A model generated the notes under the pieces. The model saw only the letters and a list, made by a program, of their open reading frames with translations, was not told where the DNA came from and searched no databases. A stretch of 64,000 nucleotides of DNA from Branchiostoma floridae (lineage: Eukaryota; Chordata; Leptocardii; Amphioxiformes; Branchiostomatidae): NCBI RefSeq assembly GCF_000003815.2, contig NC_049992.1:2288338-2352337 (forward strand), read 5' to 3'. Of the stretch, positions 38,547 to 62,941 are shown piece by piece. A program made the translations under genes and the position numbers. Each line of letters opens with the position of its first letter. Position 1 is the first letter of the stretch.

Positions 38547-41500
38547 TCACATGGTGTATCTAAAATTCAACATTAAAACCAACAGAGCTAACCCCACTAT
38601 CCCTTCCCTATTCCCCTTCACAATCCCCCCTCCCCCGAACACTTTTGGATCGTAGTCAAAGCACGGCAGTTCGTCCACCACCAGGTAGGTCTGAGCCTGG
38701 CAGAAATCCCAGCCACTCTCGTACGCCGACGCGATGGTCACACCTTCGTACGACGCTGAGCCACACTCCCGGTACACAAGCTCACAGAACCGCCCGCAGA
38801 TGTGAACTCTGTTGCTGCAGTAAATATAAAAGAAAAAACACAATCATCATTCGTGTTTTCTACATGTTTCATTTTCACTTTCTATTACTCCCTGCCCAGT
38901 ACACTAGCTCACATAACCTGCCACAGGATAGTTCTGGGTCTTTACTGAGGAAATATAAAAATCATATCTGTGAAAAGTATAATCATACTTGTCTTTCAAG
39001 GAATATGCTGGTTTTGTAACCTTTTATCTGTATGGGACCAAATATCAATATCATAAATTCCTGACTGTACTCCTCTTACATAGTAAAACAAATGAATAGG
39101 ACCAATTGCTCATACTCAGTCATAGTAACAGAGGTACTCATCAGGGTTGAAGAAGTACCATGTAGTTTATAAACAAACATACACACAAGCACAACTTACA
39201 ATAGTACCAAAGGTACTGTTTGGTACCGAAAAGTAGCACATCATGTACTTTATAAACAAACACTACTTGCACATAGGACTAACAACAACAAACACTACCA
39301 CTACTTACTCATAGTACCAGAGGTACTGCTCAGGACTGCAGAAGTAGCACATCATGTAGTTCATAAACAAACAAACAAACAAACAAACACTACTTACTCG
39401 TAGTACCTGAGGTACTGCTTATGGCTACAGAAGTACTAGTAGTACATTGTGCTGTTAATAAAAAACACAAACAAACTGTTTAACAAACAAACACTACTTA
39501 CTCATAGTACCAGAGGTACTGTTCAGGACTGCAGAAGTAACACATCATGTAGTTGAGGACGTTGCGACACTTCTGCGTGGCGCCGAAGAGCGGGTACATG
39601 GAGCTGGCCACGGACGTGACCTCCGTGCGGCGACAGCAGCAGTTGTTGCTGTACCAGGTGCAGTTGGCTAGGTTACCCTGAGGCTCCGAGTATCGTGTGT
39701 CATCTGGGCAGGCAGGGAGAAGAAAGGAGAATATCAGAGTTGAAACTTCTAAGAGAGATAAACGATTTCATAGTTTATGTTGTTATAGAAATGTGTCATT
39801 ACTGTATTATCATTGATAGCCAGAAAAGCAGGTCAAGCTTTGACCTGAGTGTACTCTCCTGGTTAAACAAATAAAGTGAAAGTGAAGTGAAAGTAAAAGA
39901 GATGAGCATTTTTATTTAGTAGTCTCCACCAGACATAAAGAAAATGGGATGGACAATTGGAAATTTTGCAGAACTTATTTTGTTGCTGAAACATAGCACA
40001 ATTTGGCCAAATGTGGCTTCTAGTTTGCCAGGAGAGTTACATGTAGCCAGACATGATTGCAAACTTGCATTACTGCAAAGGACTAATCTGTACATAGTAT
40101 GCTACTAGTAAATCCTTTGACAAAGAATTCACCAGCTATGGTTGATTTCCAGACTTACCAACCCAAAGATTCTAAAAAATGGATAATTTTCAACAGTTAA
40201 GGGTGAAAGGTCACCATTACAGACATGCGCAGAATTAGCATTTTGATGCCATAGAAGATGGCTTGCAAAAGTAAGTGTAAGAAGCCTTTTTGTTGGGAAA
40301 TGTTGGCATTTTGGAGCTGGAAATTATGGTCAGGTATTCTGGCTATTTTATTTCGTGAGAAAAATAAGCTTTCTACCATGTTTGGAGTGTTTTAGACAGT
40401 CTAGAGTATGTATAGTTTGGGTGTTATCAGGGAGGTCAAAGGTCACCAGAGTTTCTTATTCTGTTTGTGGGGGCGCATTGCGCCGAACCGAATGTTTTCA
40501 AAATCGCCATATGCACTCTTTAGAAGTCAGATTTGCCTGCCAATGTGAGATTTTCACCAACTAAACCTTAGGTAGGTGACTTTTGACATCCTTTTTCCTA
40601 CATCTTATGCATGCAACAGGTGCCTGGCAGCCATAAGAGGTCTGTACCCTTACAGCATTTTCATATGGGTTTGAAGTTCAAGGTAGACAAGTGTCGGTCA
40701 CTTCGAGTGATGCGAGGCAGGGTCGTTACAAATTTCAAAGACTTCCCGGAGACCGTTCTCCCAGTAACAGTCCCCTGGGAGTTGTTAACTCATGTGTCAC
40801 GAGGGCTATGGTGGAGGTCTAAGACTATGGTTTGTCTCAATATTGCTTTGCAAAAAGTGGCACTTAGAAGGAAGAAATGGTATAATCTGCTACCCCAGAC
40901 AGAAAGAGGCTACTGTTCCTCAATTTAGGCACCTAAATTTGTATATAAAAGCTGCTAGGCTACACTTTCAAGCATTTACTGACAGTGCATACTGTGCACA
41001 GAATGGGGGGGGGGGGGTGTAGAGGAGCCATTGTGGCTTATATTTCCCCTGAAATTGGTAATGTGACCCCGGGGCAAGCTTCAATTAACTCATTTGACTT
41101 AGAATAAGTTAGATTCATTGAGAAATTCTTCCATTTTAATACTTTTTTGTCCTTTTTGTCAGTTTTTCAACTTTTTGTATCCTTTGGCTATATATTGCAA
41201 TATGTACACTCATCAAGTGCTTACAGGTCTAAACTAACAGCATTTTAGTACTGATTCAGGAGCCTAAATGGAGGTAGAGTAGTCCCCTTGTGTCAAGGTG
41301 AGCAGTTTTCAACTCCCTTTCCTTTGATTGTCACTTTTTGCCAAATGACAAGGGACCTGTCCATATAGACTCAGACCACTGTCACAGCATTGAGGACAGC
41401 TCTCTAACACCTGTTATCCAAGCTATTCCCAAGAGACTATTCTTTGTCAGAAATCTTTGAAACTCAGGCTAATACTGAGCAACCCTTTTCCGCACCATGT

Positions 41501-44500
41501 GAAATAATTGAAATTTGTCTATCTTGAACTTGAAGCCTGTAGCAGGTGAAAGGTCACCATTACAGACATGCGCAGAATTAGCATTTTGATGCCATAGAAG
41601 ATGGCTTGCAAAAGTAAGTGTAAGAAGCCTTTTTGTTGGGAAATGTTGGCATTTTGGAGCTGGAAATTATGGTCAGGTATTCTGGCTATTTTATTTTGTG
41701 AGAAAAATAAGCTTTCTACCATGTTTGGAGTGTTTTAGACAGTCTAGAGTATGTATAGTTTGGGTGTTATCAGGGAGGTCAGAGGTCACCAGAGTTTCTT
41801 ATTTTGTTTGTGGGGGCGCATTGCACCGAACCGAATGTTTTCAAAATCGCCATATGCACTCTTTAGAAGTCAGATTTGCCTGCCAATGTGAGATTTTCAC
41901 CAACTAAACCTTAGGTAGGTGACTTTTGACAGCCTTTTCCCTACATTTTATGCATGCAACAGGTGCCAGCCAGCCATTGGAGGTCTGTAACCTTACAGCA
42001 TTTTCATATGGGTTTGAAGTTCAAGGTAGACAAGTGTCGGTCACTTCGAGTGATGCGAGGCAGGGTCGTTACAAATTTCAAAGACTTCCCGGAGACCGTT
42101 CTCCCAGTAACAGTCCCCTGGGAGTTGTTAACTCATGTGTCACGAGGGCTATGGTGGAGGTCCAAGACTATGGTTTGTCTCAATATTGCTTTGCAAAAAG
42201 TGGCACTTAGAAGGAAGAAATGGTATAATCTGCTACCCCAGACAGAAAGAGGCTACTGTTCCTCAATTTAGGCACCTAAATTTGTATATAAAAGCTGCTA
42301 GGCTACACTTTCAAGCATTTACTGACAGTGCATACTGTGCACAGAATGGGGGGGGGGGGGTGTAGAGGAGCCATTGTGGCTTATATTTCCCCTGAAATTG
42401 GTAATGTGACCCCGGGGCAAGCTTCAATTAACTCATTTGACTTAGAATAAGTTAGATTCATTGAGAAATTCTTCCATTTTAATACTTTTTTGTCCTTTTT
42501 GTCAGTTTTTCAACTTTTTGTATCCTTTGGCTATATATTGCAATATGTACACTCATCAAGTGCTTACAGGTCTAAACTAACAGCATTTTAGTACTGATTC
42601 AGGAGCCTAAATGGAGGTAGAGTAGTCCCCTTGTGTCAAGGTGAGCAGTTTTCAACTCCCTTTCCTTTGATTGTCACTTTTTGCCAAATGACAAGGGACC
42701 TGTCCATATAGACTCAGACCACTGTCACAGCATTGAGGACAGCTCTCTAACACCTGTTATCCAAGCTATTCCCAAGAGACTATTCTTTGTCAGAAATCTT
42801 TGAAACTCAGGCTAATACTGAGCAACCCTTTTCCGCACCATGTGAAATAATTGAAATTTGTCTATCTTGAACTTGAAGCCTGTAGCATTACAGCATTTTC
42901 ATATGGGTTTGAAGTTCAAGGTAGACAAGTGTCGGTCACTTCGAGTGATGCGAGGCAGGGTCGTTACAAATTTCAAAGACTTCCCGGAGACCGTTCTCCC
43001 AGTAACAGTCCCCTGGGAGTTGTTAACTCATGTGTCACGAGGGCTATGGTGGAGGTCTAAGACTATGGTTTGTCTCAATATTGCTTTGCAAAAAGTGGCA
43101 CTTAGAAGGAAGAAATGGTATAATCTGCTACCCCAGACAGAAAGAGGCTACTGTTCCTCAATTTAGGCACCTAAATTTGTATATAAAAGCTGCTAGGCTA
43201 CACTTTCAAGCATTTACTGACAGTGCATACTGTGCACAGAATGGGGGGGGGGGGGGGTGTAGAGGAGCCATTGTGGCTTATATTTCCCCTGAAATTGGTA
43301 ATGTGACCCCGGGGCAAGCTTCAATTAACTCATTTGACTTAGATTCATTGAGAAATTCTTCCATTTTAATACTTTTTTGTCCTTTTTGTCAGTTTTTCAA
43401 CTTTTTGTATCCTTTGGCTATATATTGCAATATGTACACTCATCAAGTGCTTACAGGTCTAAGCTAACAGCATTTTAGTACTGATTCAGGAGCCTAAATG
43501 GAGGTAGAGTAGTCCCCTTGTGTCAAGGTGAGCAGTTTTCAACTCCCTTTCCTTTGATTGTCACTTTTTGCCAAATGACAAGGGACCTGTCCATATAGAC
43601 TCAGACCACTGTCACAGCATTGAGGACAGCTCTCTAACACCTGTTATCCAAGCTATTCCCAAGAGACTATTCTTTGTCAGAAATCTTTGAAACTCAGGCT
43701 AATACTGAGCAACCCTTTTCCGCACCATGTGAAATAATTGAAATTTGTCTATCTTGAACTTGAAGCCTGTAGCAGGTGAAAGGTCACCATTACAGACATG
43801 CGCAGAATTAGCATTTTGATGCCATAGAAGATGGCTTGCAAAAGTGAGTGTAAGAAGCCTTTTTGTTGGGAAATGTTGGCATTTTGGAGCTGGAAATTAT
43901 GGTCAGGTATTCTGGCTATTTTATTTCGTGAGAAAAATAAGCTTTCTACCATGTTTGGAGTGTTTTAGACAGTCTAGAGTATGTATAGTTTGGGTGTTAT
44001 CAGGGAGGTCAAAGGTCACCAGAGTTTCTTATTCTGTTTGTGGGGGCGCATTGCGCCGAACCGAATGTTTTCAAAATCGCCATATGCACTCTTTAGAAGT
44101 CAGATTTGCCTGCCAATGTGAGATTTTCACCAACTAAACCTTAGGTAGGTGACTTTTGACATCCTTTTTCCTACATCTTATGCATGCAACAGGTGCCTGG
44201 CAGCCATAAGAGGTCTGTACCCTAAGCAAGTTTTTTTCTGAAAAAAATAATGTGAATTGTTGATAGAATCAACATGTGAACAAACAATTAAAGTGTAACC
44301 AAACAAAAGTGCAGAAATCAGGAGGAAAAAACACACATTTTAACTCACTTGTTCAAGTTACCCTGCCAACTGTGAGCCTCACATCATCTTATGGACAAAA
44401 CAAAATAAAGACATGAACAGAAAAAATTGTGCAACAAATATCAACATAAAAATGTAAATAAACATTATCATGAAGTACTACATGTAGCATGAAATAGTAT

Positions 44501-45561: not shown

Positions 45562-48500
45562 ATGCCAGCCGTTTCTTCATCTTCGGGGCGACCGTCTCGT
45601 CCGAAGTCTAAGGAAGGCTTCAAGCTGTCCAAGGCGCTGTCTAAGATGTCTCGGAGCGTCTTGAAGACGTCTAAGGAGCTTTACGCGGAGCTTCCTCGCG
45701 TGGCTGTGGAGCCTTCCTACACGTGGCTGGTGGCGGGACTGCTGTTCTGTCTGGAGATCGTTCTTAACGTCTTCATCATTCTCAGAGTTAACTGTGAGTT
45801 CTGAGACATTTCCGTATTTTTGATATTCTTTGCATATATTGCAACAAACAAAAATAAACACGCATTTTTGGTGCACTAAACTGTGCCAAAAGATGTGTTG
45901 GACTTACTGAAGAAAATTCATGGTTTGAGCTGTGCATGTGCAGCAAGTTGCATTGTTAAAAAAGGTTTTTAACGTCCATGATTGGTGTAATGCTTAGTTC
46001 ACCTTTATTCGCGGGGAACCTATATCCGTTGTTTATGAAAATCATATCTAGTAGAATATCGAAGTACGGTGACAAAATTATCAGCTGGTTGATAGCAGTC
46101 ACTTCCAAAGGAAGAGGAAGCGAGGTACAACTTGGTTTCAAGCTGCAATGCTTGAAAATATTGCAATTTGGACCACCGACCTTCGACTTGATACCCCAAG
46201 ATACCCTGTTTCTAAAAACAACGGATATAGGTTCCCCACGAATAAAGGTGAACTAGCGTAACTGTTATTGAAATGTTTTCCTCCATGTTGCAGATACAGA
46301 GATAGACTGGGTTGCGTACATGCAGGAAGTGGAGGGGGTCATCAACGGGACGTACGACTACATGCAGCTGAGGGGGGACACAGGGCCGCTGGTGTGAGTG
46401 TTTGTTTGTTTGTTTAAATCTCCATTGGCAGCTGTGAGGGGCAGACATCTCGAAGCAGATGTACTTAAGGAACCCTAGGGAGGAAGTCTTAAAGCATGAA
46501 GCCTTGGTTCTAGAAGATCTAGTCCTCAACTCATTTCTCCAAGACAAGCACTATTAACCCTCAGGCATGGGGAAAGCAGCTCCATTGAAACTGATCTTAC
46601 CAGTATTAGACAGATTGCAATTGTTTGTATGACCTAAACACGGTTGCAATAAAAACATGATTACCCTTTGCAAAGCAGAAGAGATGTGTTTGTTTCTAAT
46701 GCTCAGTCAGTGTCTTATAAATGATATAAAACCCTGTTCCCAGTTACCCTGCAGGTTTTGTGTATGTGTTCGGTGTGCTGTACTACATCTGATAGAAACC
46801 CTGTTTCCCAGTTACCCTGCAGGTTTTGTGTATGTGTTTGGTGTGCTGTACTACATCTGATACAAACCCTGTTTCCCAGTTACCCTGCAGGTTTTGTGTA
46901 TGTGTTCGGTGTGCTGTACTACATCTGATATAAAACCCTGTTTCCCAGTTACCCTGCAGGTTTTGTGTATGTGTTCGGTGTGCTGTACTACATCTGATAT
47001 AAAACCCTGTTTCCCAGTTACCCTGCAGGTTTTGTGTATGTGTATGTGTTTGGTGTGCTGTACTACATCTGATATAAAACCCTGTTTCCCAGTTACCCTG
47101 CAGGATTTGTGTATGTGTTCGGTGTGCTGTACTACATCTGATATAAAACCCTGTTCCCCAGTTACCCTGCAGGTTTTGTGTATGTGTTCGGGGTGCTGTA
47201 CTACATCTGTTAGAAAACCCTGTTTCCCAGTTACCCTGCAGGTTTTGTGTATGTGTTTGGTGTGCTGTACTACATCATTCTGATAGAAACTCTGTTTCCC
47301 AGTTACCCTGCAGGTTTTGTGTATGTGTTCGGTGTGCTGTACTACATCTGATATAAAACCCTGTTTCCCAGTTACTCTGCAGGATTAGTGTATGTGTTCG
47401 GTGTGCTGTACTACATCTGATAGAAACCCTGTTTCCCAGTTACCCTGCAGGTTTTGTGTATGTGTTCGGTGTGCTGTACTACATCTGATATAAAACCCTG
47501 TTTCCCAGTTACCCTGCAGGTTTTGTGTATGTGTATGTGTTTGGTGTGCTGTACTACATCTGATATAAAACCCTGTTCCCCAGTTACCCTGCAGGTTTTG
47601 TGTATGTGTTCAGTGTGCTGTACTACATCTGATATAAAACCCTGTTTCCCAGTCACCCTGCAGGATTTGTGTATGTGTTCGTTGTGCTGTACTACATCTG
47701 TTAGAAACCCTGTTTCCCAGTTACCCTGCAGGTGTGTGTGTTTGGTGTGCTGTACTACATCTGATATAAAACCCTGTTTCCCAGTCACCCTGCAGGATTT
47801 GTGTATGTGTTCGGTGTGCTGTACTACATCTGATATAAAACCCTGTTTCCCAGTTACCCTGCAGGATTTGTGTATGTGTTCGGTGTGCTATACTAATATA
47901 AAACCCTGTTTCCCAGTTACCCTGCAGGTTTTGTGTATGTGTTCGGTGTGCTGTACTACATCTGATATAAAACCCTGTTTCCCAGTTACCCTGCAGGTTT
48001 TGTGTATGTGTTCTGTGTGCTGTACTACATCTGATATAAAACCCTGTTCCCAGTTACCCTGCAGGTTTTGTGTATGTGTTCGGTGTGCTGTACTACATCT
48101 GATAGAAACCCTGTTTCCCAGTTACCCTGCAGGTTTTGTGTATGTGTTCTGTGTGCTGTACTACATCTGATATAAAACCCTGTTCCCCAGTTACCCTGCA
48201 GGTTTTGTGTATGTGTTCGGTGTGCTGTACTACATCTGATATAAAACCCTGTTTCCCAGTTACCCTGCAGGTTTTGTGTATGTGTTTGGTGTGCTGTACT
48301 TCATCTGATATAAAGACCTGTTTCCCAGTTACCCTGCAGGTTTTGTGTATGTGTTCGGTGTGCTGTACTACATCTGATAGAAACTCTGTTTCCCAGTTAC
48401 CCTGCAGGTTTTGTGTATGTGTTCGGTGTGCTATACTGATATAAAACCCTGTCTCCCAGTTACCCTGCAGGTTTTGTGTATGTGTTCGGTGTGCTGTACT

Positions 48501-51500
48501 ACATCTGATATAAAACCCTGTCTCCCAGTTACCCTGCAGGTTTTGTGTATGTGTTCGGTGTGCTGTACTACATCACGGGTCACGGAGCCAACATCCGCCT
48601 GGCGCAGTTCATCTTTGCTGGGTTCTACCTGGTCCTGCTGGGGCTGGTCTTTAGGATATACCACAGAACGCTCAAGGTGGGAACTCAAATGTAGCAAGTT
48701 GTATGGGACTTAGTTGTTACATATCTTCTTCATCACTGCGGAGACATATATGTAAGACCTTATCCCTTTTCCTTACTTCTGGTTCTGTCCTGCACCACGG
48801 GCTGATCAAGCTGATTGCCAGGTCAGAGCCTGAGAAGCTGTATCAGCGTCACCACAAAATCTATGGATTACAACTTTACAACTTTGTTCTTTACATAACA
48901 TCAACTCAAGGCCCATCAAACTACCCCAAGGCTAAAAACTGCCATGGTCCTACGTAGTTAAAGCAAACATAGTCACAAAGTTCCAATGATTATGTAACCT
49001 CCTGTGGTACCACCCTTTACAGGCTTGATGCAGTTGCTGGTTTGCACCAAACGACTTGTCACACCTTAAAAGTTAAACCATACATATCTAATTGCCATTG
49101 CAAACTGATACACCTAATGAATAGGAAATGCATGTAATGTTGACTTATTCCCCGCAGGTGCCCCCGTACGCGTTCCTGTTCATGTGCGGCGCCTCGTACC
49201 GGATCCACTCCATCTTCGTGCTGCGCCTGTTTAACGACCCGGTCGCCATGCTGTTCCTCTACCTGTCAATCAACCTGTTCCTGGACAAGCACTGGGCCTG
49301 GGGCTGCTTCTGGTACAGGTGAGATAATATCTACCTGTCAGGTAAACTGTGCAGGTGAGACAAGCACTGGGCCTGGGGCTGCTTCTGGTACAGGTGAGAC
49401 AAGCATTGGGCATGGGGCTGCTTCTGGTACAGGTGAGATGATACCTACAGGTACTGTACAGGTGAGACAAACACGGGGCATCGGCTGCTTCTGGTACAGG
49501 TGAGACAATATCTACAGGTAAACTCTACAGGTGAGACAAACATTGGGCCTGGGGCTGCTTCTGGTACAGGTGAGACAAGCACTGGGCATGGGGCTGCTTC
49601 TGGTACAGGTGAGACAATATCTACTGGTGAACTGTGCAGGTGAGACAAGCACTGGGCATGGGCTGCTTCTGGTACAGGTGAGACAAGCACTGGGCATGGG
49701 CTGCTTCTGGTACAGGTGAGACAATATCTACTGGTGAACTGTGCAGGTGAGACAAGCACTGGGCATGGGATGCTTCTGGTACAGGTGAGACAATGTCTAC
49801 AGTTAAACTCTACAGGTGAGACAAGCACTGGGCATGGGCTGCTTCTGATACAGGTGAGACAATATCTACAGGTACTGTGCAGGTGAGACAAGCACTGGGG
49901 CTGGGGCTGCTTCTGGTACAGGTGAGACAGTGTCTTCAGGTACTGTACATGTGAGACAAACACTGGGCATGGGGCTGCTTCTGGTACAGGTGAGACAAGC
50001 ACTGGGCATGGGGATGCTTCTGGTACAGGTGAGACAGTGTCTACAGGTACTGTACAGGTGAGACAAGCACTGGGCATGGGGATGCTTCTGGTACAGGTGA
50101 GACAATATCTACAGGTACTGTACAGGTGAGACAAGCACTGGGGCTGGGGCTGCTTCTGGTACAGGTGAGACAGTGTCTTCAGGTACTGTACATGTGAGAC
50201 AAGCACTGGGCATGGGGATGCTTCTGGTACAGGTGAGACAAGCACTGGGCATGGGGATGCTTCTGGTACAGGTGAGACAGTGTCTACAGGTACTGTACAT
50301 GTGAGACAAGCACTGGGCATGGGGATGCTTCTGGTACAGGTGAGACAAGCACTGGGCATGGGGATGCTTCTGGTACAGGTGAGACAAGCACTGGGCCTGG
50401 GGCTGCTTCTGGTACAGGTGAGCACTCTTCCAGTGCCGTGGTGTTAGTCTAAATGGTTCTGGGTATCAGCCCACTGCCCTGATAGCCTCAAAAAAGTTAT
50501 GGGACTGTCTTAGCCTTTTTTACCTCCTGGGGTAGCCTCAAATACACATTGGACTTGTTAAAGGGGCATTCCACTCCAGAAGGGCGTGATGTTTTTCAAT
50601 AGATAATGTGTCAATGAATACATAATCAGCCGAATTTTGTGGAATTCACCTTGGAATAAATTACGCGATGTGTGTTTTGTAAAACAAAATGACACTCACT
50701 AAATAAACCCATGCAGACCCTACCAATGCATTCCCTATACGTGTAGACACTTCCTTTATCGTGAATAATTTTGGCATAAATGAGGGGCGCTAAGCACACC
50801 AAGAAGTTCAATTGTTAACAAGATATCAAAGAACACATAACAAGACGTATCTTTCTTAGCGCCCCTGAAATTAGCTTTGTAACCTTACCTAAAAATTTTG
50901 CATTGTATTCAGCCATAGGATTAATTCAATTAGCGGATACTTGGGGAGTTTAGTACTACAATAGTAGAAGACTGAATGCTTTTGAGGAACGTGGAGTGAT
51001 GTGAAGTAGTATGTATTTATTACTTCCTAAAATTAATATCTATCGGAAAATAACACTCCTGTGTGGAGTGGAATGCCCCTTTAAGGAGCTCTGTTTTTTT
51101 TTTGTCTATGTCATTTCCTCCTGGCCTTTTAATTTGATGTCTCATCCATCCCTCCTTCTCCAAACATTTGCTTTCCTTCTGCTTTTTAAACTCACTTCCT
51201 TGCGCTGTAAATGTTAAGTCTTACGAAGTTGAATAAGCATTTATTAAGAAATGTTTTCCAATCTTTTCCACAGTTTTGCAGTCTCCATCAAGATGAACGT
51301 TCTCCTGTTTGCTCCCGGCCTACTTCTGCTGTTGCTAACGGAGCTGGGGGTGGTCAAGACTGTTGCTAGGCTGGCCATCTGTGCTGGGCTACAGGTGTGT
51401 AACTAGGTGCGGTCAAAACCGTTGCTAGGCTGGCCATCTGTGCTAGGTTGCAGGTGAGTGTAACTAGGTGTGGTCAAAACTGTTGCTAGGCTGACCATCT

Positions 51501-54342
51501 GTGCTGGACTACAGGTGTGTAACTAGGTGTGGTCAAAACCGTTGCTAGGCTGGCCAGCTGTGCTAGGTTGCAGGTGAGTGTAACTAGGTGTGGTCAAGAC
51601 TGTTGCTAGGCTGGCCATCTGTGCTGGGTTACAGGTGTGTGTACATCGTCCTACGCAGGGGCATCCAATGGCAAAACATCCTGTCTGGATGTACCCTGCT
51701 GTCTCAACCGTCACTCTTAGTTCCTGTGGACGCCCCCCCCCCCCCCCACCAGCTGTCAGGCAATAAGAGAATAGGCCTTTCAGTTTTCAAAAGGGGTCCC
51801 GCATATATAAGGGTCTTGCTCATCAATATTTATAGGCAGGGCGATCAGGAACTAAGGGTGATGGTTGAGAAAGTAGGGTACATCCAGACAGGCGGTTTCG
51901 CTGTTGGATGTCCCTGCGTAGGAGGATGGTGTGTGTAACAATCTAACATTGCTTTATAATTTAAAAAAAAAATTCATTTATTGGGTGGGCCAACGATTCA
52001 TAGAATGGGTGGCATCTTCAAGGTTTAACCATTCAATATGGCAGCCATATGTATGTCATATTGATGGGAGTGTGCAAAGCGGACACAACTAATGATTATT
52101 GGGTTTTCCATGTTTGGTGTACAGTTAGTTCTGGCTGTTCCATTCCTGTTGGAGAACCCCATGGGGTACATGGTACGGTCCTTTGACCTGGGTCGCCAAT
52201 TCTTCTTCATCTGGACAGTGAACTGGCGGTTCCTCCCGGAGGACGTGTTTCTCAACCGCTACTTCCACCTGTCCTTACTGGGGCTCCACCTAGCAGCTCT
52301 CGCCATGTTTGCAGTCTACAGATGGAACAAGTGAGTGCTTCATTCAGAGCTTGAACATTCTAAATATTCTAGAAGTCATCATTAGCTTTTGTTAGAAAAA
52401 AAACCCACATAGAAATCACAAATTTGAAGGTGTTTTGTATTTTGGTGTTTTTTAATCAGTTGTTAGAGATACTAGACTAAGTATATTGCCAAAAAAAGTG
52501 AGAATATGGACGTCAAGCAAGAATTACTTTACGTCATAGTATCATATAGCTCAGGATTTCTAATGTAGAGATACAATTGAGTTTTCTTTGCAAAGTGTGC
52601 AGTTTATAAAGATTTCTATTTTGTGGAGAGGCCAAATTTCTGTTACCTTGTAGCTGTGTAACATCTTGTTGTTGTTCCCATCCAGGAAAACCCATCTTAT
52701 TGACCTGTTAAGACTGGAGGTACCTAAAAAGGAGCAGGAAGATGCCCAGCTCAGCAGCAATGATATCCTTTAAAGGAGTGTGGTGGTCTAGTGGTTAGTT
52801 ATCCTCCTTATACTAGACCAGGAAGTCAGGGTGGTCTGGTGGTCAAAGTTGAAGACACTGATTTTTTACTATAATTGTTCAAAGGATATAGTACTTCTGT
52901 GTTTGAGTAAAAACTTTCATTTGGTAGGTAAACGTGAGTTTGATTTCTGACCGAGTCATTCCAAAGACGTTAGAACTGGTACTTGCTGTTTTCTCTGCTT
53001 AGCACTCTGGGAAAGAGCTAGTATGGGAGTTGAACACACAGACTAATGCCAGCAGATTAGCCCCCTGCTGTAGTGATTGCACATTAAGTTGTGTGGACCA
53101 GGGCTACAGAAACTGACATGGGTGCTTCCCAATGTATCATCTGGTGCAGGAAGGACTTTAACCAACTGTCCAAAGCTATCTCAACCCTCAGCCTGCCAAG
53201 GCACCAAATCTGTACTTGTTACAGTGTAAGGCAGCATTTCTTTAACCACATCTTACAGATTGTGTCGGTTCTCTTCACGTCCAACTTCATCGGCCTGTGC
53301 TTCAGCCGATCGCTGCACTACCAGTTCTATGTCTGGTACTACCACACTCTGTACTATCTGCTGTGGTCCACAGATCTACCTACAGTAGTCAGGTAAGTTT
53401 TGTTTTAAGAAGCATGCAGTACAAAATATTTGATGCGGTAGTCAAGCGGACCATGGCTACTTAACACCAGAGAAGCTTTGCAGTAAACTAAATTGGAAGG
53501 ATGGATATACAGTTCCTAACCTACTTGCCTCTGAAGAGCTAACTCCAGATAAAGGACCATGCAAAACTGGAGGGATAAAAACTGCATTTAACAACAGTTC
53601 AATACAGACATGCTTTTTCGTTACAGATTTCTCATAGTTTTTGTTTGAAATCTTGTGAACTTTAGATTATTGTTCAGTAATTACCTGAAGTAGTGGGCTC
53701 TGCCTGAAACATCTGACCATTCCCAAACTCTGTTTCAGGGTTGAACAAGTTTTCTAAAATCTACTTGTCCTATCGGGCAAGCACATAAAAAATGTACTTG
53801 CCCGAACCAATTTTTCACTTGCCCAAAATTCAAATGTCACTGTTACTAGTATATGCATTTTCACTTCCAGCAATGGAATTCTCTGTAGACAATTGCTTGA
53901 TGTCTTGACTGTAAAAAGTAACAAGTATATCAAAATTGCACTAAAATCAATGGAAAAATCTTACTTGCCCGATCGGACAAGTGGGGTAGGACATGCACTT
54001 GCCCGAACAGCACTTTCACTTGCCCTGGACAATAGGGCTAGTGGACTTGTTTATCCCTGTGTTTCCTTGCATATCTTATTACCTAGATGTCGACTCTTCA
54101 TTGACTTTTAAGACTTTTAAATCAAGGTATTGTGAAGAATTTTGGTGTATAGGACTAAAGTCATGAATTTTTGTTGTTGCAGACTGTTGGTGCTAGGTGT
54201 GATAGAGATGGCGTGGAACACCTACCCTTCCACTGTGGAGAGCTCTGTCTCTCTCCATGTCTGTCATCTGGTCTTACTGGGGGCACTCTGGGTCAGAGGT
54301 CATGTGTCACAAACAGAGGGTAAGGTCAAGAAGGTCAAGTAA
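45562..54342 (+). CDS. ALG3: ALG3, Dol-P-Man:Man5GlcNAc2-PP-Dol alpha-1,3-mannosyltransferase
   Basis: ER membrane enzyme (GT58, GT-C fold) that adds the first dolichol-phosphate-mannose-derived mannose to Man5GlcNAc2-PP-dolichol on the luminal side during N-glycan precursor synthesis. Exons: 45562-45793, 46294-46393, 48529-48676, 49158-49318, 51274-51394, 52125-52330, 52686-52762, 53257-53392, 54183-54342; all phases agree, 446 residues (human about 438). Recognisable blocks: TM1 near residues 50-75, [65 protein letters not shown] with [13 protein letters not shown], and [20 protein letters not shown]. The C-terminus ends KKVK, a KKXX-type ER retrieval signal. Introns 2, 4 and 5 carry junction-derived tandem arrays; intron 7 is an AT-AC U12-type intron. 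An in-frame TTG at 45,550 is less likely than the ATG at 45,562. Confidence 0.97.
45997..46253. mobile_element. 257-bp MITE with TA target duplication
   Basis: Inverted ends of about 38 bp begin GTTCACCTTTATTCG and differ at one base. TA flanks both sides (45,995-45,996 and 46,254-46,255), as in Tc1/mariner-type elements. It lies in ALG3 intron 1, 40 bp before the exon 2 acceptor. Confidence 0.9.
46733..48575 (+). repeat. 27-copy tandem array of the ALG3 exon 3 splice acceptor
   Basis: Unit of 68-69 bp: tgatataaaaccctgtttcc, then CAG, then TTACCCTGCAGG and the first coding bases of exon 3 up to TACTACATC. The last unit is the real exon start (acceptor AG at 48,527-48,528; exon 48,529 on). 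Copies are highly similar with a few indels (GTATGT insertions near 47,040 and 47,530; a shortened unit near 47,730; another near 47,890). Each unit carries polypyrimidine tract, AG and about 48 exonic bases, then in nearly all copies an in-frame TGA or TAG. Confidence 0.96.
49285..50418 (+). repeat. ~20-copy tandem array of the ALG3 exon 4 end plus donor
   Basis: The last coding bases of exon 4 (ending GGCTGCTTCTGGTACAG) followed by GTGAGA are repeated about 20 times, the first being the real junction at 49,318/49,319. Basic unit is 37-38 bp; longer versions add AATATCTACAGGTACTGTACAGGTGAGACA-type spacers given here only in part (caatatctacaggtactgt). One copy near 49,853 has GATACAG instead of GGTACAG. 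Reading through the real donor gives a stop (TGA) at once. Confidence 0.95.
50558..51084. mobile_element. TTAA-flanked MITE, copy 2
   Basis: Same element as 23,198-23,729: TTAA at 50,558-50,561 and 51,081-51,084, termini AGGGGCATTCCACTC and GAGTGGAATGCCCCT. It lacks a short segment present in copy 1 near the right arm. It lies in ALG3 intron 4, just after the donor array. Confidence 0.9.
51350..51640 (+). repeat. 5-copy tandem array of the ALG3 exon 5 end plus donor
   Basis: A 59-60 bp unit contains the last ~43 coding bases of exon 5 (TTGCTAGGCTGGCCATCTGT at 51,363) ending in ACAG followed by GTGTGT or GTGAGT and taactaggtg. Copies start near 51,352 (real exon), 51,410, 51,470, 51,529 and 51,590. 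The fifth copy is cut by the MITE at 51,644. Confidence 0.93.
51644..51928. mobile_element. 285-bp foldback MITE with 9-bp target duplication
   Basis: Inverted arms of about 90 bp start CATCGTCCTACGCAGGG and end CCCTGCGTAGGAGGATG. GTGTGTGTA flanks it at 51,635-51,643 and 51,929-51,937, so it inserted into the donor end of the last array unit. Mutator-like by duplication length (inference). A C-run lies at 51,732-51,747. Confidence 0.9.
52763..53256 (+). other. U12-type AT-AC intron (ALG3 intron 7)
   Basis: The intron starts ATATCCTTT exactly at 52,763 and ends TTAC at 53,256; no GT-AG pair restores the frame here. A branch-site-like TTTCTTTAAC lies at 53,237-53,246, about 11 bases from the 3' end, as expected for U12 introns. 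Joining aat g|ag att gives [13 protein letters not shown], in frame and matching the ALG3 family. Confidence 0.93.
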
Positions 54343-55082
54343 CATGTCTGTGAGGGTGTGATGGGGGTTTTACAGGAAGTTGCAGAAAAAAGTGTTAATT
54401 GTAAGCATCTTTGTTAGAGATTATTATAGTTATTTTTAGTATTCGTACATGGAATCTCAGGTTAATTTTTCGTCATCGCCAATTTTTTGTCTTCAAAGGA
54501 AGACTCTTATTCATTATTTTGTATAAAGAATTTTGTTTAATATGTGCAATTTAATCAGTTGTCTTAAACTGTCATCTGTCTTGACTCAACCTCATCAACA
54601 GTTCTATCGATACCGTGGTTCATTTTGAAGCTGTAGGGCTGATTGATAAGGATTTTACTCTTGTCACCATTTACCGAAGGAGGCAATAGATATTTTTCAT
54701 GAGCAAAGATAATTGTTTTCTTAAATGTTTCAGCACAAATAAGAATATCCATAAAGAAGTAAAAAAAAAACAGTTCATGTCCGTGGTACTGTTTCTGTTA
54801 TTGTTATTAGAACAGTTGTGTTAAGAGCATTAAAATTGGATTGCTTGAAAAGACACTTGAATAGGACTCGTCTTAAAGTTCTTATCAAAGTTTTCACTAA
54901 GCCAAAATCATGACATAAGTTAATATAAAAATAAATGCTGAGGGAGGCATGAGGTTCCACTTCACCACAATCACCATGACGGTGGCGCCAGTGATGCAAC
55001 CAGTTGAAGCCTTCTTGTTCATACCCTGAGTAATGAATGAGAAGGAAGGAAAGGAGTGCCTTGACAGTTTGGGATATGACTA

Positions 55083-55229
55083 ATCTCCAAGCAGATCTTG
55101 CAGTGGCATAAGATAGTATCATAAGCTGGGGAAGGAGTTCAGCCAGAAGAGTTTCATTGTCCACCGCCAACTAAACTCCGTCTCCAGCTTATGATACTAT
55201 CTTATGCCACCGTAAGATCTGCTTTGAGA
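55083..55229. mobile_element. Foldback MITE, CAGATCTTGC family
   Basis: Arms CTCCAAGCAGATCTTGCAG and the inverse CTTATGCCACCGTAAGATCT fold together; GGCATAAGATAGTATCATAA is common to both arms. A related element is at 57,189-57,357 and a half copy near 61,610-61,665. Confidence 0.85.
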
Positions 55230-56674
55230 TAAGTATATGACTGCTTACCTGCCTAAGTGCCTAGGTCAGGGATGGGCTTCTTTGTTCCTCTCTGTGAGGC
55301 TACCTCTAATACAACTAATCAAATAGAATTAGCAGTGCTCTGTACAACCCCAAACCCTAGTTCTTCATCATTGAAGTGTCATGATGTTTAAGTAAAAAGG
55401 CTAACAACGTTTTGTAATATTTTGTACAGTTTATTTGGTTTCACCACCTTGATTATAGTGGAACATCTGGCTGACAATTTTCCTGGCTTTTTTAGTGCAA
55501 CATTTCACAAAGTTGGTCACGATTTTCACTGGACAATTCACAAAGCTGTGGACCCTTCATTGTTAGCTCTACAGGGCCACGGGATCCATTACTGATTAGG
55601 TGTATACAGAAATGAATCTCCCCCTCCCATACACATGTAATGTACAAGCCGGTGCATTGGTATACTTCGAAAGCAATTCTCTGACGTAACTTGCTTTAAC
55701 GTCATTAGGAGAAGAAACGACTTACTTTAATATGCGTCAAACATATGTTTTATGTACTCAAGTAGAAATATACATCTTAACAATATTATCAAAATTGTAG
55801 AAGACTTGACTGGCTTAATGATCTGAACTGAATGATAGTTATGTACATACCTCAATAACCTCATCAACATATTTTGGCTTCCATCCTCCACTATAGCATT
55901 TTTCTTGGACAAAGCGGCACATATGGAAAAGGACTTCGCTCTACAGTTTTTCTTATTCCAAAACAAAAACAGATTATTTTTTACTCACTCTATAAAATGC
56001 AAACATTTATCAATGGCCCAATGCCTGAAGATCAAAGCGTGCCATTCACAGTTTGATGCCCTGGTTTTCATTTTCAATCCATTACAAGTCTCAACATAAG
56101 TGACACGACAGTACTATATTTTCTAGGTTACATGGCCAAGTCTGAAGCATCTTTCACAAAAACATGTATAACTTGTTGTATCAATAATAACTTCTAAAGT
56201 GTGCCTCTAGATTATGCCAAATATGGAAAATATCTTGCTGTATAAATCGTCAGTAAAACACGTCATTTTGCTGATAGAGAGATTATAAGACATCCTGACG
56301 TTCAAAAACATTATCAAGGACAAACGTCACAACTAACCTAGGAGAATGTAAGCTTGACATATGATATATCCTATATTATGTCTCCTTCAAACCCTTCTGG
56401 ACAAATCTCTGGGTTTGTTCTAAATTCTGGGTGTGACCAGTGCTATCCGACATTGATTACAGTAATACAGAAACAACTGGGTACAAAGTTGTCTTATGTA
56501 GCCACTAGCGCCTTAAAGACAAACGCTAGTTCATTATACCAACACTCTACTAACCCGCAAGAGGCAAAACGCAACTACAAATGTACTCCGAGTCTTACAT
56601 TGGCACCACATTTTTGCCAAGTAGAAAATAATGTTTCCACCCCTCCAGCCTGGCAGGTTTGGTATGTTTAGAGT

Positions 56675-57082: not shown

Positions 57083-57188
57083 CCCCTAGCGTAGTATTTA
57101 CTCTATTGGACCAATTTCTACAATTAGACCACCAAACCACGAAGCCTGGTAGAGGCTAACATGTAGTAACTGTGGGGAACTATTTGAG

Positions 57189-57357
57189 TAATCTCCTAGC
57201 AGATCCTACGATGGCATAAGATAGTACTAAACCAAGGAGTGTAGTCAGCTAAGAGGTGTACATTTGCCATGTAGCTAAACACACTCCTAAGCCGGCTTCA
57301 CTCCTCTGGCAGCTTTTGATACTATCTTAGGATACCGTAGGATCTGCTTGGCGATTA
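57189..57357. mobile_element. 169-bp foldback MITE with 9-bp target duplication
   Basis: Termini TAATCTCCTAGCAGATCC and GGATCTGCTTGGCGATTA are inverted; flanks CTATTTGAG (57,180-57,188) and CTACTTGAG (57,358-57,366) are a one-mismatch duplication. Same family as 55,083-55,229. Confidence 0.88.
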
Positions 57358-57479: not shown

Positions 57480-57670
57480 CACACTGTAAGGCTCTGTACA
57501 ATGCAGCGTTTGAATGTGTTGCAAATATTCTTTTGACAACTAGCGATTTTGACCGCCACTGCACACATGTGAAAGCTTTGTACAATGCAGCTTTTTGTAC
57601 GGGTTTTCATCACCAATGCACACAATTCTTTAAGGCTTTGTACAGAGCATGTTTTTTGGAACGGCATATT
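57480..57670. repeat. Degenerate ~80-bp direct repeats
   Basis: AAGGCTCTGTACAATGCAGC, AAGCTTTGTACAATGCAGC and AAGGCTTTGTACAGAGCA occur at about 57,488, 57,573 and 57,631. No clear coding role. Confidence 0.55.
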
Positions 57671-58283
57671 CGTTCTTTACATACAGTTCAATTCACAAGA
57701 CAATTACTGAGCTTGTCCTCGCTCAACATCGGCAGCGACGTCACTACATATAGGCCTTAACTGCATTCATTTCATTTCATTGATTTTTTTTACATGTAAA
57801 ATCACACTTGACCTCTCATTGGCATCCGTATGTTTCTGTATCACTTTCCGTAGCCGTGAGACACTGAAGAAGCTACCGATGGTCTTTCGAGACGGAAAGA
57901 GCCAAAGAAGGTACATCAGAAAAGCTTACAAGAAGTAGGCTACTGCTCATATCACAGCGCTATGAGCACAGGGATCTATTAAACCTTAAGTTGTCCGATG
58001 CCCAAAGGTGGCCCCAGACATCTACCAGCTACCATATAAATGCAAAACAACACAGTATGGTAAAGCAGTTGTTCTGGCCACTGACGTTTCATTACGTCTG
58101 CATATCTAGCCACCTTCATTGTTTACATGTCCTCTTGGCGTGGAAACATTTTGTTGGATTCCTAGCAGATCCGACAATTGATAAAGTTTTTCCAGGAGCA
58201 GAACTGTTTGAAGATGACTCCAGCCGCTTGTATCAAACCTGGCAGAAGGAAGAAGAGAAGGAGAAGGGTGAGAGACGCGAGCC

Positions 58284-61200
58284 TCATCGCAAGAGGACCA
58301 GCACCTCCATGGCGGCAGCTTTCAGGCTGAGCATGTCCCATCCCCTTGGCAACGCGTTCTCGTTCGTTGCTAGCCACGTCTCGGCTTTTCCCGCCATGAG
58401 CTCCCACTCCTCAAACAGCCGCACGCACTTCTTCTCCAGCCAGCCCAGCGCCACCAGAGTCGCCCAGAACCGCGATTTCGTCGACTCCATGTCGTTTGAT
58501 TCTTGCGTCACGCTCTCTTCTTTGTCCTCGTCGTCCGCGCAGTTCCCGCCAAAATTGTTCTCCTCTGTCGTCTGCGCGGTCGTCTGTGATTGGTTGAAAA
58601 GCGCGGGAGAGACGGTTTTCCAGGACTCGTTCAGCTCCTGCCACATCATCTTTTTCAAGTTCTTGGCCTCGTTGTTCGTGCCGTTTTTCTTGTGTCTCCT
58701 ACCGAAGTTCCAGCAGTGCGTCGTGTTGTCGTCGGAATCGCGTCGGGCGATCTCGGCGGACCCGAACCTTCCCGACGGGTGCTCGTGCCTGTCGAACATC
58801 GGGCATGCGCGGTACAGCGTTTCCAAGGGGATGTCGATGACGTCAGAGAATGACGTGTCCAGTTGCCAGGCGCCGTCCGCCATCTGTAGCTCCACCAGTC
58901 GCGCGAACTTCCCGCTCACTGGGATCAGCTCTCCTCCCAGGACGGGTCTGGGAGAAACAAAAATTCATTATTAGACTTCATATAAATCCAATGGACGATA
59001 TTTTCAAGAGGCCCTAATATATAATGACTGTGTAAAAAGGATAACGTCAAATGTAGCTAGCTTCGTAGTCAGGAGCCTTGATTTTGCAATCAGGAGCCTT
59101 GACATATGTCCTCAATTTTAGACATTTTCTTTCGATATCAAGAGAAGCATCATTTTGTGGTACCGGTAGGAAAACGTACATATCGAGCACTGTCATTCTT
59201 ATGGTACCCATCTAGCCACTTATTGTCTTTAAAATGTTTGTTAACATTTTGGCAATTTATGCAGAATCATCCATGATCTATTGGGTCAGATTTAGCCGCT
59301 GCGCTACTTGATTCTGCATTTGTCTATCCAGCATAACTGTTCCCAGGGTTTCCAAGTCTCACCTGTACATGGGTTTCTTGGAAGGAGTGGTTCCGGAGGG
59401 GAGCAGCTTGGAGAAGGAGCCGAACTTGGCGAGGATGAACCTCTCGGCCCTGTGGAGGTCTGGCCCCGCAGGCAGACTGGCGGACGGGCCGGGCGCCTTC
59501 TCCATGCTGTGCCGCTTCCGCAGGAGGCTCTCTGCAACAGGTTCATACTACCATATTAACAAGGGATCACGACTGTTTCCAGAGAGTTTGTTTGATTGTT
59601 TGAACCTTTATCCATTAATGAAAGCTCAAATCGGCCTACAGGCCGCTTTTCATTGAGGTCGTGAGGTAAGAGGCAAGCCAAAGCCCCCCCCCCCCCCCGC
59701 CATGGGTCAGACAAAGTATATACACTCAGTTTACATCATTTAAAATCCTAAAGAGTTATAAGTTTATATACACAAATTTACATACAAAGTACATGGTACA
59801 AAATGCACAATAGTGAGTGCTGCTACACGATTCGATCCGCTCATTTCGGTCGTAGTCTTTGGCATCTGGTTCAACATGACAACCCTATCCCAGGAATTTT
59901 TGCGCCCTTTCCCAATGGCAATGCCAATGAAATGGCATGTAAATTGGATTCTTTCTCTGGATTCATGAAGGCAGGCAAAATCAGTGGGATGTTTTTTTGT
60001 TGACCAGACAGGGACAGAAGCTTACAGTGCCAGGGAAACCTGTCCTGAGAGAGATTGGTGAACAGGTTAGGAGTACATCCAAGAAGGTCGTGTTAGGTCT
60101 GATAGAATGGTTTGTATATTTGTTTAAAGGAAAGCTATTGCAGCTTTTCTTGGGTGTATACATATAAGAAAAAAAGGCCTAAGGAATAAATGACTTCAAG
60201 GAAAGAATCTACAGTGAATTTTAGAATTTAAAACAAATTTGATGATACTTGATAAAAAAAGATACAGAGTGTCAGGAAAAAGTATTTTCTTCCAAAAATT
60301 GAATGAGGTCACAAAATGCCGCGACGTATTTTGCGGCAAAGCAATAGGCGATATCTGTGTGTATAAAATCCTTCATATTGTGCCCACCATTCTTTTCCCT
60401 TTTCTCAAATCACTGTGATGTACCTCAAGTGTACATTTCGGTGATCGATACGTCCCGTGTTCCTTGACCTTGTCATACATATGTGACAGCGCCACACACG
60501 AACTTCTGTCGATGGTGACTCAACGTCAACGATGCCCTATATTTTCCTTACATCCCTCTCCTATATATTTCTCACGTTTCCCTTCCATCCCTCCATCCCT
60601 CCCTAACTCACCGTCTATGGATGAGAAGCTGTGCCTGTCTGAGTGCCCGGATGTGACGGTGAGGTGGTTGAGTGACGGGGCCGACCCGTGGAAGGGGCAG
60701 CTGTGGAGGCCTGGAGAGCGCAACCACGTTTAGACATGCACTTAGCAAACAAACCGCAAGGAGACGCACGGGCACACTGGGAGAGCCATTTTTTTCTCCA
60801 GGTGTATATGTTAGTAATTTTATCACAAAAAATCGATTTACTACTTACTACATGTTTTTTACATAAAATAACATATATAATATAATAAAATAATAATATA
60901 TACTCATAGACTTATCAGCAGACTTTTACTTTAAAAAATGTAAATAGTAAATGGATTTTATGACAAAATTTACTAGTGGTACCTAATTTCTTTAAATGTA
61001 GAATTTTTAGAACTAAACATTTAACAACTGCAATCCTTTATTTTTGTTTGTAGCAAATATTCATCACACGGCCCCCAGTGTGTCTACCTCCACATGCCTC
61101 CTAGCGGTTTCGCTAATTGTTGTTTCTTGTTATTCAAACTCCACTTAGTAGATTTAAATTCGTGCTTAATGAAAAAAGTCTTTTGTTAACCTCCTTGGTG

Positions 61201-62941
61201 TAAGTGACCATGTCTTTGATTGATTATTTCTTCTGTAGGTATGATAAAGTGATGTAAAGACCATAACGGTTTCTATACTATATAAAAGGCCAACTGATGA
61301 TCCTGTATAGCATTAAATGCATATATCAACTTAAATCTGTCATTGTCATTCCTGATTGTAAAATCGTGAGCTGTAAGCATGGCTGCTGTCACGTGAAATG
61401 TCAACCAATCAGAAGATAGAAGAAATAACATGGCGTCCGTGTATTGAATTACAGGGCACAAAATGTCGTCCTTACTTGCGTAGTCTTGGAAGACTTCGTC
61501 GGATCCATCCGAGTCGAAACTCGCCCTTGGTCTCCGGCCCAGGCCCAGCGAGAAACCGTAGCGTTTGCCTGTGGTCAATAATAACAAGCATGTCAGGGTG
61601 TTTGATACAAGTAGATCCTACAGTAGCATACGATAGTATTAAAAGCTGGCAGAGGAGTCTAGCTAGATTTTTCATAAGGTTGGTTGACATGGCAGTGCGA
61701 TGTGCTTTAATCAATCTAATGTTTTCAACACACTGACATACGCACGCACGCACCGCCACACACACGCAGAAACTCACACATACGCGCGCGTGACACACTA
61801 ATCACACGACGAATGTAGTGTATACGAGGGGGGCAAATGCGCCTGGGACTTTGCAGCATGGGCAGCAGGTCAAATATGTCGGGTAGTGCGGGCCCGGACA
61901 AGACAGTGGGAAGCGGCGTATTCGGACTTACAGAGAACCTAACACGGTGCTGTTGTACACTACTCACCCTGTGCCCGTTTCTTTGCCCTGTCCCTGGGCC
62001 TGTTGTGCACCACTGGCGGCAGCACGGCCCCCGTTAGCTCGTCCACGGCCACGAACGTCGTCAGGCGGGACGGGATGTTCGCCGCCTGGCTCAGCTCGAC
62101 TATCTTCTCCTTTAAGGAACCGGCGTCTTCCATGGGGGCCTCGTGGATCGGAGAGTCTAAGGAAATAGACAAGAAACATTTTAAGATGGGATATTTGCTT
62201 CTACCAACAAGTCATGTTTGGCTAGCAACAATCTTCTCCTCAGTCAAGGAACCCGGGCGTCTTCCATGGGGACTTCGTGGATAGGGGAGTCTAAGGAGAC
62301 GTGAAAACCGTTATGACCCGTGATCGGGACTGAGAATTAGGTTTGACTCTTTTGTCTTGTTCAGCAGTGATCATGAATCCGCATTTTAAGCGTCACTGTC
62401 ATCTAACAATTGATAGTAAATGAGAGGTTAAAGAACTTATTCCTGAGCAAATTTTGAAAGTTCATACTGTTCTACAGACTAGCACAGAACTTTGCTGATT
62501 CTTTGCTTCGTATAGGATGGAGAGATTCTACTGCACGTTTGAGAGAAAAACTAGTTGTAACTTTGTATTCAATTTGATTATTTTGCAAAGACTGTCTTAT
62601 TTGGTGTTTAGCTGTTCAGTTCAGTTGTAAAACCTGAGCGCATTGCTGGATCCTTGTCAACATCGTTGAAAGGCGTTGGAATGTATTTTATTCCGCAAGC
62701 AGTAATACCTTCTAGTTGTGAAGAGCCTTTGCGCAGAATCTCATCCTCAAAGTCCCGGATGAGCGTGGTCGCCGCCAGCTGGTGTATGACGTCATCCCAC
62801 GGACTGTCCTCGTTCCCAGAAGGCAGTGTGACTTCCGGGTCAAGGGCCTCAGTGATGTCAAAGGGCACCTCGCGGACGAACTCCTTCCCGCAGAGCGTTC
62901 CCCTGATGATGGCCACACACTGTCCGTCTCTACTGTCGTGC
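58284..62941 (-). CDS. VWA5A/PARP4-like protein, C-terminal half (5' part outside window)
   Basis: Exons in transcript order: 62709-62941, 61968-62156, 61476-61568, 60612-60710, 59363-59531, 58284-58947; phases agree throughout, 481 residues to TGA at 58,284-58,286. The family has N-terminal VIT and von Willebrand A domains; only the region after vWA is here. Matching blocks: FVREVPFDITEALD, HQLAATTLIRDFEDE, KEKIVELSQAANIPSR with TTFVAVDELTGAVLPP, then in the last exon FARLVELQMADGAWQLDTSF and FWATLVALGWLEKKCVRLFE ending in WELMAGKAETWLA. A Ser/Asn/Asp-rich stretch of roughly 100 residues separates the last two blocks. Function in this family is not well settled. One decayed copy of the 62,156 acceptor edge lies at 62,229-62,300. 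The upstream exon must end two bases into a codon. Confidence 0.85.
59685..59700. repeat. C homopolymer
   Basis: Run of about 16 C in the intron of the VWA5A-like gene; length is likely to vary or be misread. Confidence 0.85.
61610..61665. mobile_element. Half copy of the CAGATC foldback MITE
   Basis: GTAGATCCTACAGTAGCATA followed by GATAGTATTAAAAGCTGGCA matches one arm of 57,189-57,357. The other arm is missing. Confidence 0.65.
62229..62300 (-). repeat. Decayed copy of a VWA5A-like exon acceptor edge
   Basis: ATCTTCTCCTCAGTCAAGGA through CTTCCATGGGGACTTCGTGG to GGGGAGTCTAAGGA matches the real exon edge at 62,099-62,167 (CTTCCATGGGGGCCTCGTGG, GAGAGTCTAAGGA). It includes the acceptor and about 60 exonic bases; the copy has lost its frame. 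Confidence 0.85.

What the first reader, a model, noticed from the sequence alone, without database searches (positions are those of the whole stretch)
38815..62300. Splice-junction duplication as a regional pattern in several genes
Junction-derived repeats occur in ALG3 (three junctions), the folate-receptor-like gene (both ends of intron 2) and the VWA5A-like gene (one acceptor), with probable cases in TRPM (exons 6, 13, 22). They range from fresh multi-copy arrays to decayed single copies. That suggests continuing birth and death of such repeats, and a possible source of new splice sites. From memory, minisatellites spanning exon-intron junctions were reported at the amphioxus Adh locus; this window may show a general property of the genome.
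Basis: partly seen in the sequence, partly recalled or inferred. Interest (0 to 1): 0.93.

Follow-up and report, generated by a model that had tools for sequence, protein, structure and literature searches.

The report
Minisatellites straddling exon-intron junctions
In this large animal genome, which looks like amphioxus, short tandem repeats often start inside an exon and run into the neighbouring intron, carrying spare copies of a splice site; the effect was already known from a few genes, looks common across the genome, and may be mostly what random repeat birth leaves after selection protects the exons.

Summary
The core observation is real. Of 60 splice junctions tested in the window, 5 have strong forward copies beside them in the intron (z 25-42): ALG3 exon 3 acceptor (27 copies), ALG3 exon 4 donor (20), ALG3 exon 5 donor (5), a folate-receptor-like donor, and one acceptor of a minus-strand gene. 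A sixth, decayed case (folate-receptor-like acceptor, z 7.8) is likely. The TRPM cases fail: 0 of 31 junctions. These are "mirages", already published for several amphioxus genes (PMC3087553, PMC3902484). New here is a sample of 42 loci from four gene families: 8 of 174 modelled junctions (4.6%, CI 2.0-8.9%) carry copies, so it is a general feature. Are junctions favoured? Junction-crossing arrays are 17 of 40 versus 8.6 expected (p 0.0016), but 13.7 expected (p 0.17) if exon-anchored copies stay recognisable twice as long, and 11 of 36 versus 7.9 (p 0.14) by a stricter rule. Best explanation: minisatellites born anywhere in genes; those crossing junctions are tolerated because the authentic site is kept and, in ALG3, decoys lead to early stops. 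A modest junction hotspot is not excluded.

The parts
46722..48574 (+). ALG3 exon 3 acceptor array: 27 copies, unit 63-75 bp (23 bp intron end + about 46 bp exon start); last copy (exon start 48529) is the authentic one
   Evidence: TRF; junction test z 42; copies listed; AG kept 27 of 27; genome search listed 26 matches, all at ALG3
49284..50422 (+). ALG3 exon 4 donor array: 20 donor copies in 39/68 bp units; first copy (exon end 49318) is authentic
   Evidence: TRF; z 28; copies; read-through meets a stop at the second codon
51350..51643 (+). ALG3 exon 5 donor array: 5 copies of a ~60 bp unit (45 bp exon end + ~15 bp intron); first copy (exon end 51394) is authentic
   Evidence: TRF; z 32; copies; read-through stop at the fourth codon
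45562..54342 (+). ALG3 gene, 9 exons: 45562-45793, 46294-46393, 48529-48676, 49158-49318, 51274-51394, 52125-52330, 52686-52762, 53257-53392, 54183-54342; joined exons give a 446-residue frame
39281..39554 (-). Folate-receptor-like gene: donor array (~104 bp unit, 2.7 copies by TRF at 39299-39554); authentic exon 39703-39502; weaker related copies to 39113
   Evidence: TRF; self-match; z 28; exact donor core at 39502 and 39309; Pfam
38895..38960 (-). Decayed copy of the folate-receptor-like acceptor junction (authentic exon starts 38814)
   Evidence: not significant with strict scoring (p 0.055); z 7.8 with loose scoring, alignment
62228..62297 (-). Single copy (84%) of the acceptor junction of the exon 62156-61968 of the minus-strand gene
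   Evidence: z 25; six-exon model open over 506 residues
16183..16236 (+). Intron-only repeat next to a TRPM acceptor (exon start 16340); does not include exon sequence, so not a junction copy

Best explanation
These are minisatellites ('mirages') born by local tandem duplication, mostly of units of some 50-200 bp, at more or less random places in genes, then expanded and turned over by slippage or unequal exchange. A founder unit that happens to include an exon end leaves the working splice site at the exon and pushes all further copies into the intron. Such arrays survive because the copy joined to the rest of the exon still makes normal mRNA, and use of a decoy site, at least in ALG3, runs into an in-frame stop, so wrong transcripts are likely to be destroyed. 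Shown: the arrays, their anatomy, their frequency in a genome sample, the stops in ALG3. Inferred: random birth, the mutational mechanism, correct splicing and decay of wrong transcripts.
For: Five of 60 window junctions and 8 of 174 sampled junctions have copies (difference not significant, Fisher p 0.33). The same sampled loci hold 23 ordinary intron arrays beside 17 that cross exon edges, with similar period (median 130 versus 127) and identity (median 89.5 versus 88.9%), as expected of one process. No array of 40 lies wholly in an exon (2.7 expected, P 0.058). Exon-like parts of decoy units vary not much less than intron-like parts in four of five arrays (pi 0.037/0.059, 0.111/0.125, 0.054/0.064, 0.045/0.062) and more in the fifth (L026, 0.061/0.000 over only 8 intron bases), so there is little sign of coding constraint. 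Decoys: 25 of 26 upstream ALG3 exon 3 acceptors reach a stop after 14-18 codons, one after 40; the authentic 27th is open; donor read-through stops at the second codon (exon 4) and the fourth (exon 5). Published RT-PCR in other mirage genes is reported to suggest regular splicing (PMC3087553 passage).
Against: The array-level count at junctions is twice the uniform expectation (17 of 40 versus 8.6, p 0.0016) unless the detection-lifetime correction, which is my assumption, is accepted. Junction arrays cluster by gene (four in one myosin locus; sum-of-squares p 0.039), which random placement does not predict. Exon-like parts are slightly less variable than intron-like parts in four of five arrays, and a count against the authentic ALG3 copy gave 1.9% versus 6.9%. 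No RNA was seen, so normal splicing is not shown here.
Confidence: 0.68

Rival explanations
1. Junctions are true hotspots of tandem duplication, for example through short AGGT-type microhomology shared by donors and acceptors, or through co-transcriptional DNA damage near splice sites.
For: 17 of 40 arrays cross an exon edge versus 8.6 expected, p 0.0016; with overlap thresholds from 1 to 20 bp the count is 14-18 and p 0.001-0.004; per-gene clustering p 0.039.
Against: The excess is not significant when exon-anchored copies are allowed twice the detection time (13.7 expected, p 0.17) nor with the stricter copy-level rule (11 of 36 versus 7.9, p 0.14, four arrays set aside; periods up to 200 bp 11 of 33 versus 7.1, p 0.075; at least 90% identical 5 of 16 versus 3.0, p 0.16). 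Breakpoint microhomology was not measured.
Confidence: 0.22
2. The decoy sites have a function, for example tuning ALG3 output through stop-containing splice forms, and are kept by selection.
For: AG or GT intact in the copies counted: 27 of 27 ALG3 acceptors, 22 of 22 myosin acceptors and 9 of 9 HECT donors, though copies were found with patterns that include the site. Exon-like parts are slightly less variable in four of five arrays.
Against: The difference between exon-like and intron-like parts is small and reversed in the fifth array; the ALG3 exon 3 unit was found only at ALG3 (other units were not searched for), so there is no shared element.
Confidence: 0.05
3. Copy numbers or whole arrays are assembly errors.
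Against: Units carry different point and length variants; only one pair of the 26 ALG3 exon 3 decoy units is identical. Similar arrays occur in many unrelated loci. The PGBD5 authors report that re-examined Sanger and new Illumina data confirmed their sequence (PMC3902484 passage).
Confidence: 0.05

Closest known systems
Amphioxus 'mirages' (Adh3, globins BflGb6 and BflGb9; Ebner et al. 2010, PMC3087553, passages seen)
   Same: Tandem duplications spanning an intron-exon boundary at either end of an exon, splice signals kept in many copies, other copies in the intron
   Different: New genes (ALG3, folate-receptor-like, and sampled kinesin, HECT, TCP1 and myosin loci); 27 copies in ALG3 versus 6 in BflGb6 haplotype 1; a rate estimate from a sample of loci, which I did not find in print
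Mirage-like repeats in lancelet PGBD5 (2 x 60 bp and 3 x 108 bp, or 7 and 6 copies in another assembly; PMC3902484, passages seen)
   Same: Unit size and position at splice sites
   Different: Different gene; fewer copies in that report
Tandem repeats at exon-intron boundaries of recent human paralogs (PMC2812944, passages seen)
   Same: Minisatellite expansion at a boundary
   Different: There repeats vary between paralogs and may form new introns; here the arrays seen in ALG3 simply lengthen existing introns

Membership tests
Mirage (junction-spanning minisatellite as defined in PMC3087553) | tandem units include both exon end and intron with the splice signal | tested here: met
Mirage (junction-spanning minisatellite as defined in PMC3087553) | both 5' and 3' exon boundaries can be affected | tested here: met
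   window 2 acceptors and 3 donors; sample 3 acceptors and 5 donors
Mirage (junction-spanning minisatellite as defined in PMC3087553) | occurs in cephalochordate genes | not testable with these tools
   genome unnamed; 513 Mb in 431 contigs fits Branchiostoma floridae from memory
Mirage (junction-spanning minisatellite as defined in PMC3087553) | regular mRNA splicing despite the repeats | not testable with these tools
   no RNA held; in ALG3 only the authentic sites of the sites tested leave the frame open
Mirage (junction-spanning minisatellite as defined in PMC3087553) | length instability between haplotypes or cells | not testable with these tools
   one assembly; the ALG3 exon 3 unit matched only at its own locus
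Intron gain by tandem duplication (Rogers model, cited in PMC3087553) | a new intron is spliced out between duplicated AG/GT sites | tested here: not met
   in ALG3 the decoys tested are followed by early stops and the frame uses the original junctions; not tested in the sampled loci

The most novel reading that the evidence does not exclude
Splice junctions in this genome are about twofold hotspots for the birth of minisatellites, clustered in certain genes, so that roughly one junction in twenty carries spare splice sites at any time: a standing, genome-wide supply of raw material for new exons and introns.
Probability: 0.25. Interest if true: 0.75.

Novelty: new member of a known kind. Interest (0 to 1): 0.5.

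Why it matters
A rate of about 5% of junctions, if it holds genome-wide, would make this genome a natural test bed for how the spliceosome picks one site among many near-identical ones, and for the long-argued idea that introns arise from tandem duplications. It also warns that automatic annotation may turn decoy copies into false exons, as the PGBD5 authors concluded for one predicted exon (PMC3902484 passage).

Tried and rejected
Considered and rejected: TRPM exons as junction copies; a dispersed element as the source of the ALG3 exon 3 repeat (26 matches listed, all at ALG3); strong coding conservation of decoy exon parts (a first count against the authentic copy gave 1.9% versus 6.9%, but the authentic intron copy is itself an odd variant; diversity among decoys, shows a small difference in four arrays and the reverse in the fifth); VWA5A by Pfam (no match). 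A whole-window scan of 60-mers mixes junction arrays with mobile elements and was not used for rates.

Rows dropped before counts: searches tested 60 of 61 junctions; the acceptor at 62941 lies too near the window end for the script's 3 kb flank and was dropped. Junctions without a modelled neighbour were compared with up to 3 kb of flank. Searches gave 540 exon matches in six families; 186 rows from myosin, kinesin, TCP1 and HECT were used, the p450 and AMP-binding lists not at all. I planned 80 places and obtained all or part of 42. Places were picked as clusters of exon matches, not for repeats, but the repeat in L013 was already visible in the family listing; that array counts among the 17 of 40 and 11 of 36, not among the 8 of 174. 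Two partial copies in L013 were left out as exons because they are the repeat. One search modelled 97 introns in 40 loci; 3 more pairs had no splice pair, and pairs with a profile gap outside -25 to 20 were not tried; one search kept 87 (pair score at least 6). Splice sites there are predictions from a matrix of 29 donors and 30 acceptors of the window. Exon edges without a partner were predicted one-sidedly or taken from the match edge. In one search, four of 40 arrays that touch an exon without meeting the rule were set aside.

Papers: Canestro et al. 2002 is not held, so Adh3 is known to me only through passages of PMC3087553 and PMC3902484 and from memory. Passages of the huntingtin paper PMC2206037 mention tandem repeats in introns of that gene's scaffolds but do not tie them to junctions.
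Full report
What is there. ALG3 lies at 45562-54342 on the plus strand: nine exons join to a 446-residue frame and exons 1-6 match Pfam ALG3 with E 3.9e-110. Three of its junctions sit in tandem arrays. Intron 2 ends in 27 head-to-tail copies of a 63-75 bp unit made of the last 23 bp of the intron and about the first 46 bp of exon 3; the last copy is exon 3 itself. Exon 4 ends in an array with 20 donor copies counting the true one, and exon 5 in a five-copy array, again counting the true donor. A folate-receptor-like gene on the minus strand (Pfam E 8.9e-9) has a donor array and a decayed acceptor copy; a minus-strand gene with a six-exon, 506-residue open frame (no Pfam match) has one acceptor copy. 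TRPM (best solved-structure match 6co7, E 8.7e-97) has none among the 31 junctions tested.

More than chance. Sixty-base queries across 60 junctions were compared with their own introns, or with up to 3 kb of flank where the neighbouring exon was not modelled, and with 200 dinucleotide shuffles each. Five stand at z 25-42; the next best is z 4.9 with a 17-base match. With 120-base queries and looser scoring the same five lead (z 25-54); the folate-receptor-like acceptor reaches 7.8 with an alignment through the junction, and two TRPM junctions reach 10.4 and 7.5 through intron sequence only or nearly so. Exon-internal 60-mers gave 9 hits of 212, all in the exons of the five arrays.

Is it general? 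Because the finding was picked for its repeats, I sampled other genes by family: exon matches to kinesin, myosin, TCP1 chaperonin and HECT in the same genome, 42 loci, 186 exon matches, 190 kb of gene span. Places were picked as clusters of exon matches, not for repeats, though one repeat (L013) was already visible in the listing. In 87 modelled introns, 8 of 174 junctions have a copy in their own intron (4.6%, 95% CI 2.0-8.9%), in 7 of 87 introns (8%, CI 3.3-15.9%); the window's 5 of 60 does not differ (Fisher p 0.33). Examples: a myosin gene (L043) with a 22-copy, 50 bp array over an acceptor, a donor repeat of about two copies in the same intron, and two further junction repeats nearby; a HECT gene (L026) with 9 donor copies; a kinesin (L013) in which the family search itself hit the same exon piece three times, about 150 bp apart. 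So the pattern is not confined to this region.

Are junctions special? Counting 60-mers, they are (421 of 4404 in the sample versus 8 of 174 junctions; 359 of 1760 in the window versus 5 of 54 junctions of modelled introns), but overlapping 60-mers of one array are not independent. Counting arrays (forward self-matches up to 600 bp apart), 17 of 40 cross an exon edge by at least 8 bp; placing each founder unit uniformly in its locus predicts 8.6 (p 0.0016), and for overlaps from 1 to 20 bp the count is 14-18 with p 0.001-0.004. However, a copy anchored in an exon is protected on one side, so such pairs should stay recognisable up to twice as long (my assumption); doubling the odds predicts 13.7 (p 0.17). 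A stricter rule, requiring one repeated segment to cross a predicted junction by 8 bp on both sides and setting four arrays aside, gives 11 of 36 versus 7.9 (p 0.14), 11 of 33 versus 7.1 for periods up to 200 bp (p 0.075), and 5 of 16 versus 3.0 for arrays at 90% identity or more (p 0.16). The honest reading is a possible excess of up to about twofold that these data cannot separate from detection bias. No array of 40 lies wholly in an exon, where 2.7 are expected (P 0.058). Junction arrays are somewhat clustered by gene (p 0.039).

How it is tolerated. In ALG3, splicing to any of the 26 decoy acceptors would meet an in-frame stop, after 14-18 codons for 25 and after 40 codons for one; only the 27th leaves the frame open. 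Reading past the true donor of exon 4 or exon 5 meets a stop at the second or fourth codon, and the folate-receptor-like donor reads GAG TAA. A wrong choice is therefore likely to be discarded by nonsense-mediated decay; this step is inferred from general knowledge. Decoy exon parts vary slightly less than decoy intron parts in four of five arrays (pi 0.037-0.111 versus 0.059-0.125, ratios 0.6-0.9); the fifth, HECT L026, is reversed, with no variation in only 8 intron bases. The exon-like parts thus show little sign of coding constraint. The copies counted keep AG or GT (27 of 27; 22 of 22 and 9 of 9), but the search patterns included the site, so little weight is put on it. The genome search with the ALG3 exon 3 unit listed 26 matches, all at ALG3 (the tool scores only best candidates), so it seems to have grown in place.

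What is known. Passages of Ebner et al. 2010 (PMC3087553) describe such repeats as 'mirages' in two globin genes, cite Adh3 and two papers on further amphioxus loci, propose intron gain from them and report RT-PCR that suggests normal splicing. Passages of PMC3902484 describe them in PGBD5 and cite troponin C. Passages of PMC2812944 describe boundary minisatellites in recent human paralogs. Searches of the open library for amphioxus or Branchiostoma with minisatellite, mirage, tandem repeat, exon-intron junction and related terms (listings seen) showed no genome-wide survey; subscription papers are not held, so one may exist. The finding is thus a set of new members of a known kind, with a rate estimate and a test of junction preference that I did not find in print.

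Noticed in passing
window 52763-53256: ALG3 intron 7 starts ATATCCTTT and ends TTCTTTAACCACATCTTAC, and this AT-AC cut gives the open frame used; it looks like a U12-type intron (consensus recalled).
   Followed up: partly
window 40202-44223: A 1.34 kb unit repeated about three times at 98-99% identity; the same unit occurs at many places in the genome, several times in tandem at ~1.3 kb spacing, e.g. four on contig C4.
   Followed up: partly
window 55074-55230, 57182-57355, 61600-61660: Two fold-back elements with arms about 100 bp apart around the motif GATAGTATC, and a third place where one such arm is seen (by eye).
   Followed up: no
window 3186-4261 (+) and 24852-25499 (-): Open frames resembling reverse transcriptases of non-LTR retrotransposons (by eye).
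   Followed up: no
L021 6334-6909 (gene strand): A kinesin locus where a 134 bp unit, about four copies, contains what looks like the conserved PYRNS exon with its donor; counted as intron-internal because that exon was not in the match list.
   Followed up: partly
L005 6163-6405 (gene strand): A repeat that begins at the first bases of an intron and covers nearly all of it (130 bp offset, 76%); counted as intron-internal.
   Followed up: no
G000:C11:22404929-22425562: HECT exon matches repeated about every 4 kb on one strand, suggesting a tandem gene array.
   Followed up: no
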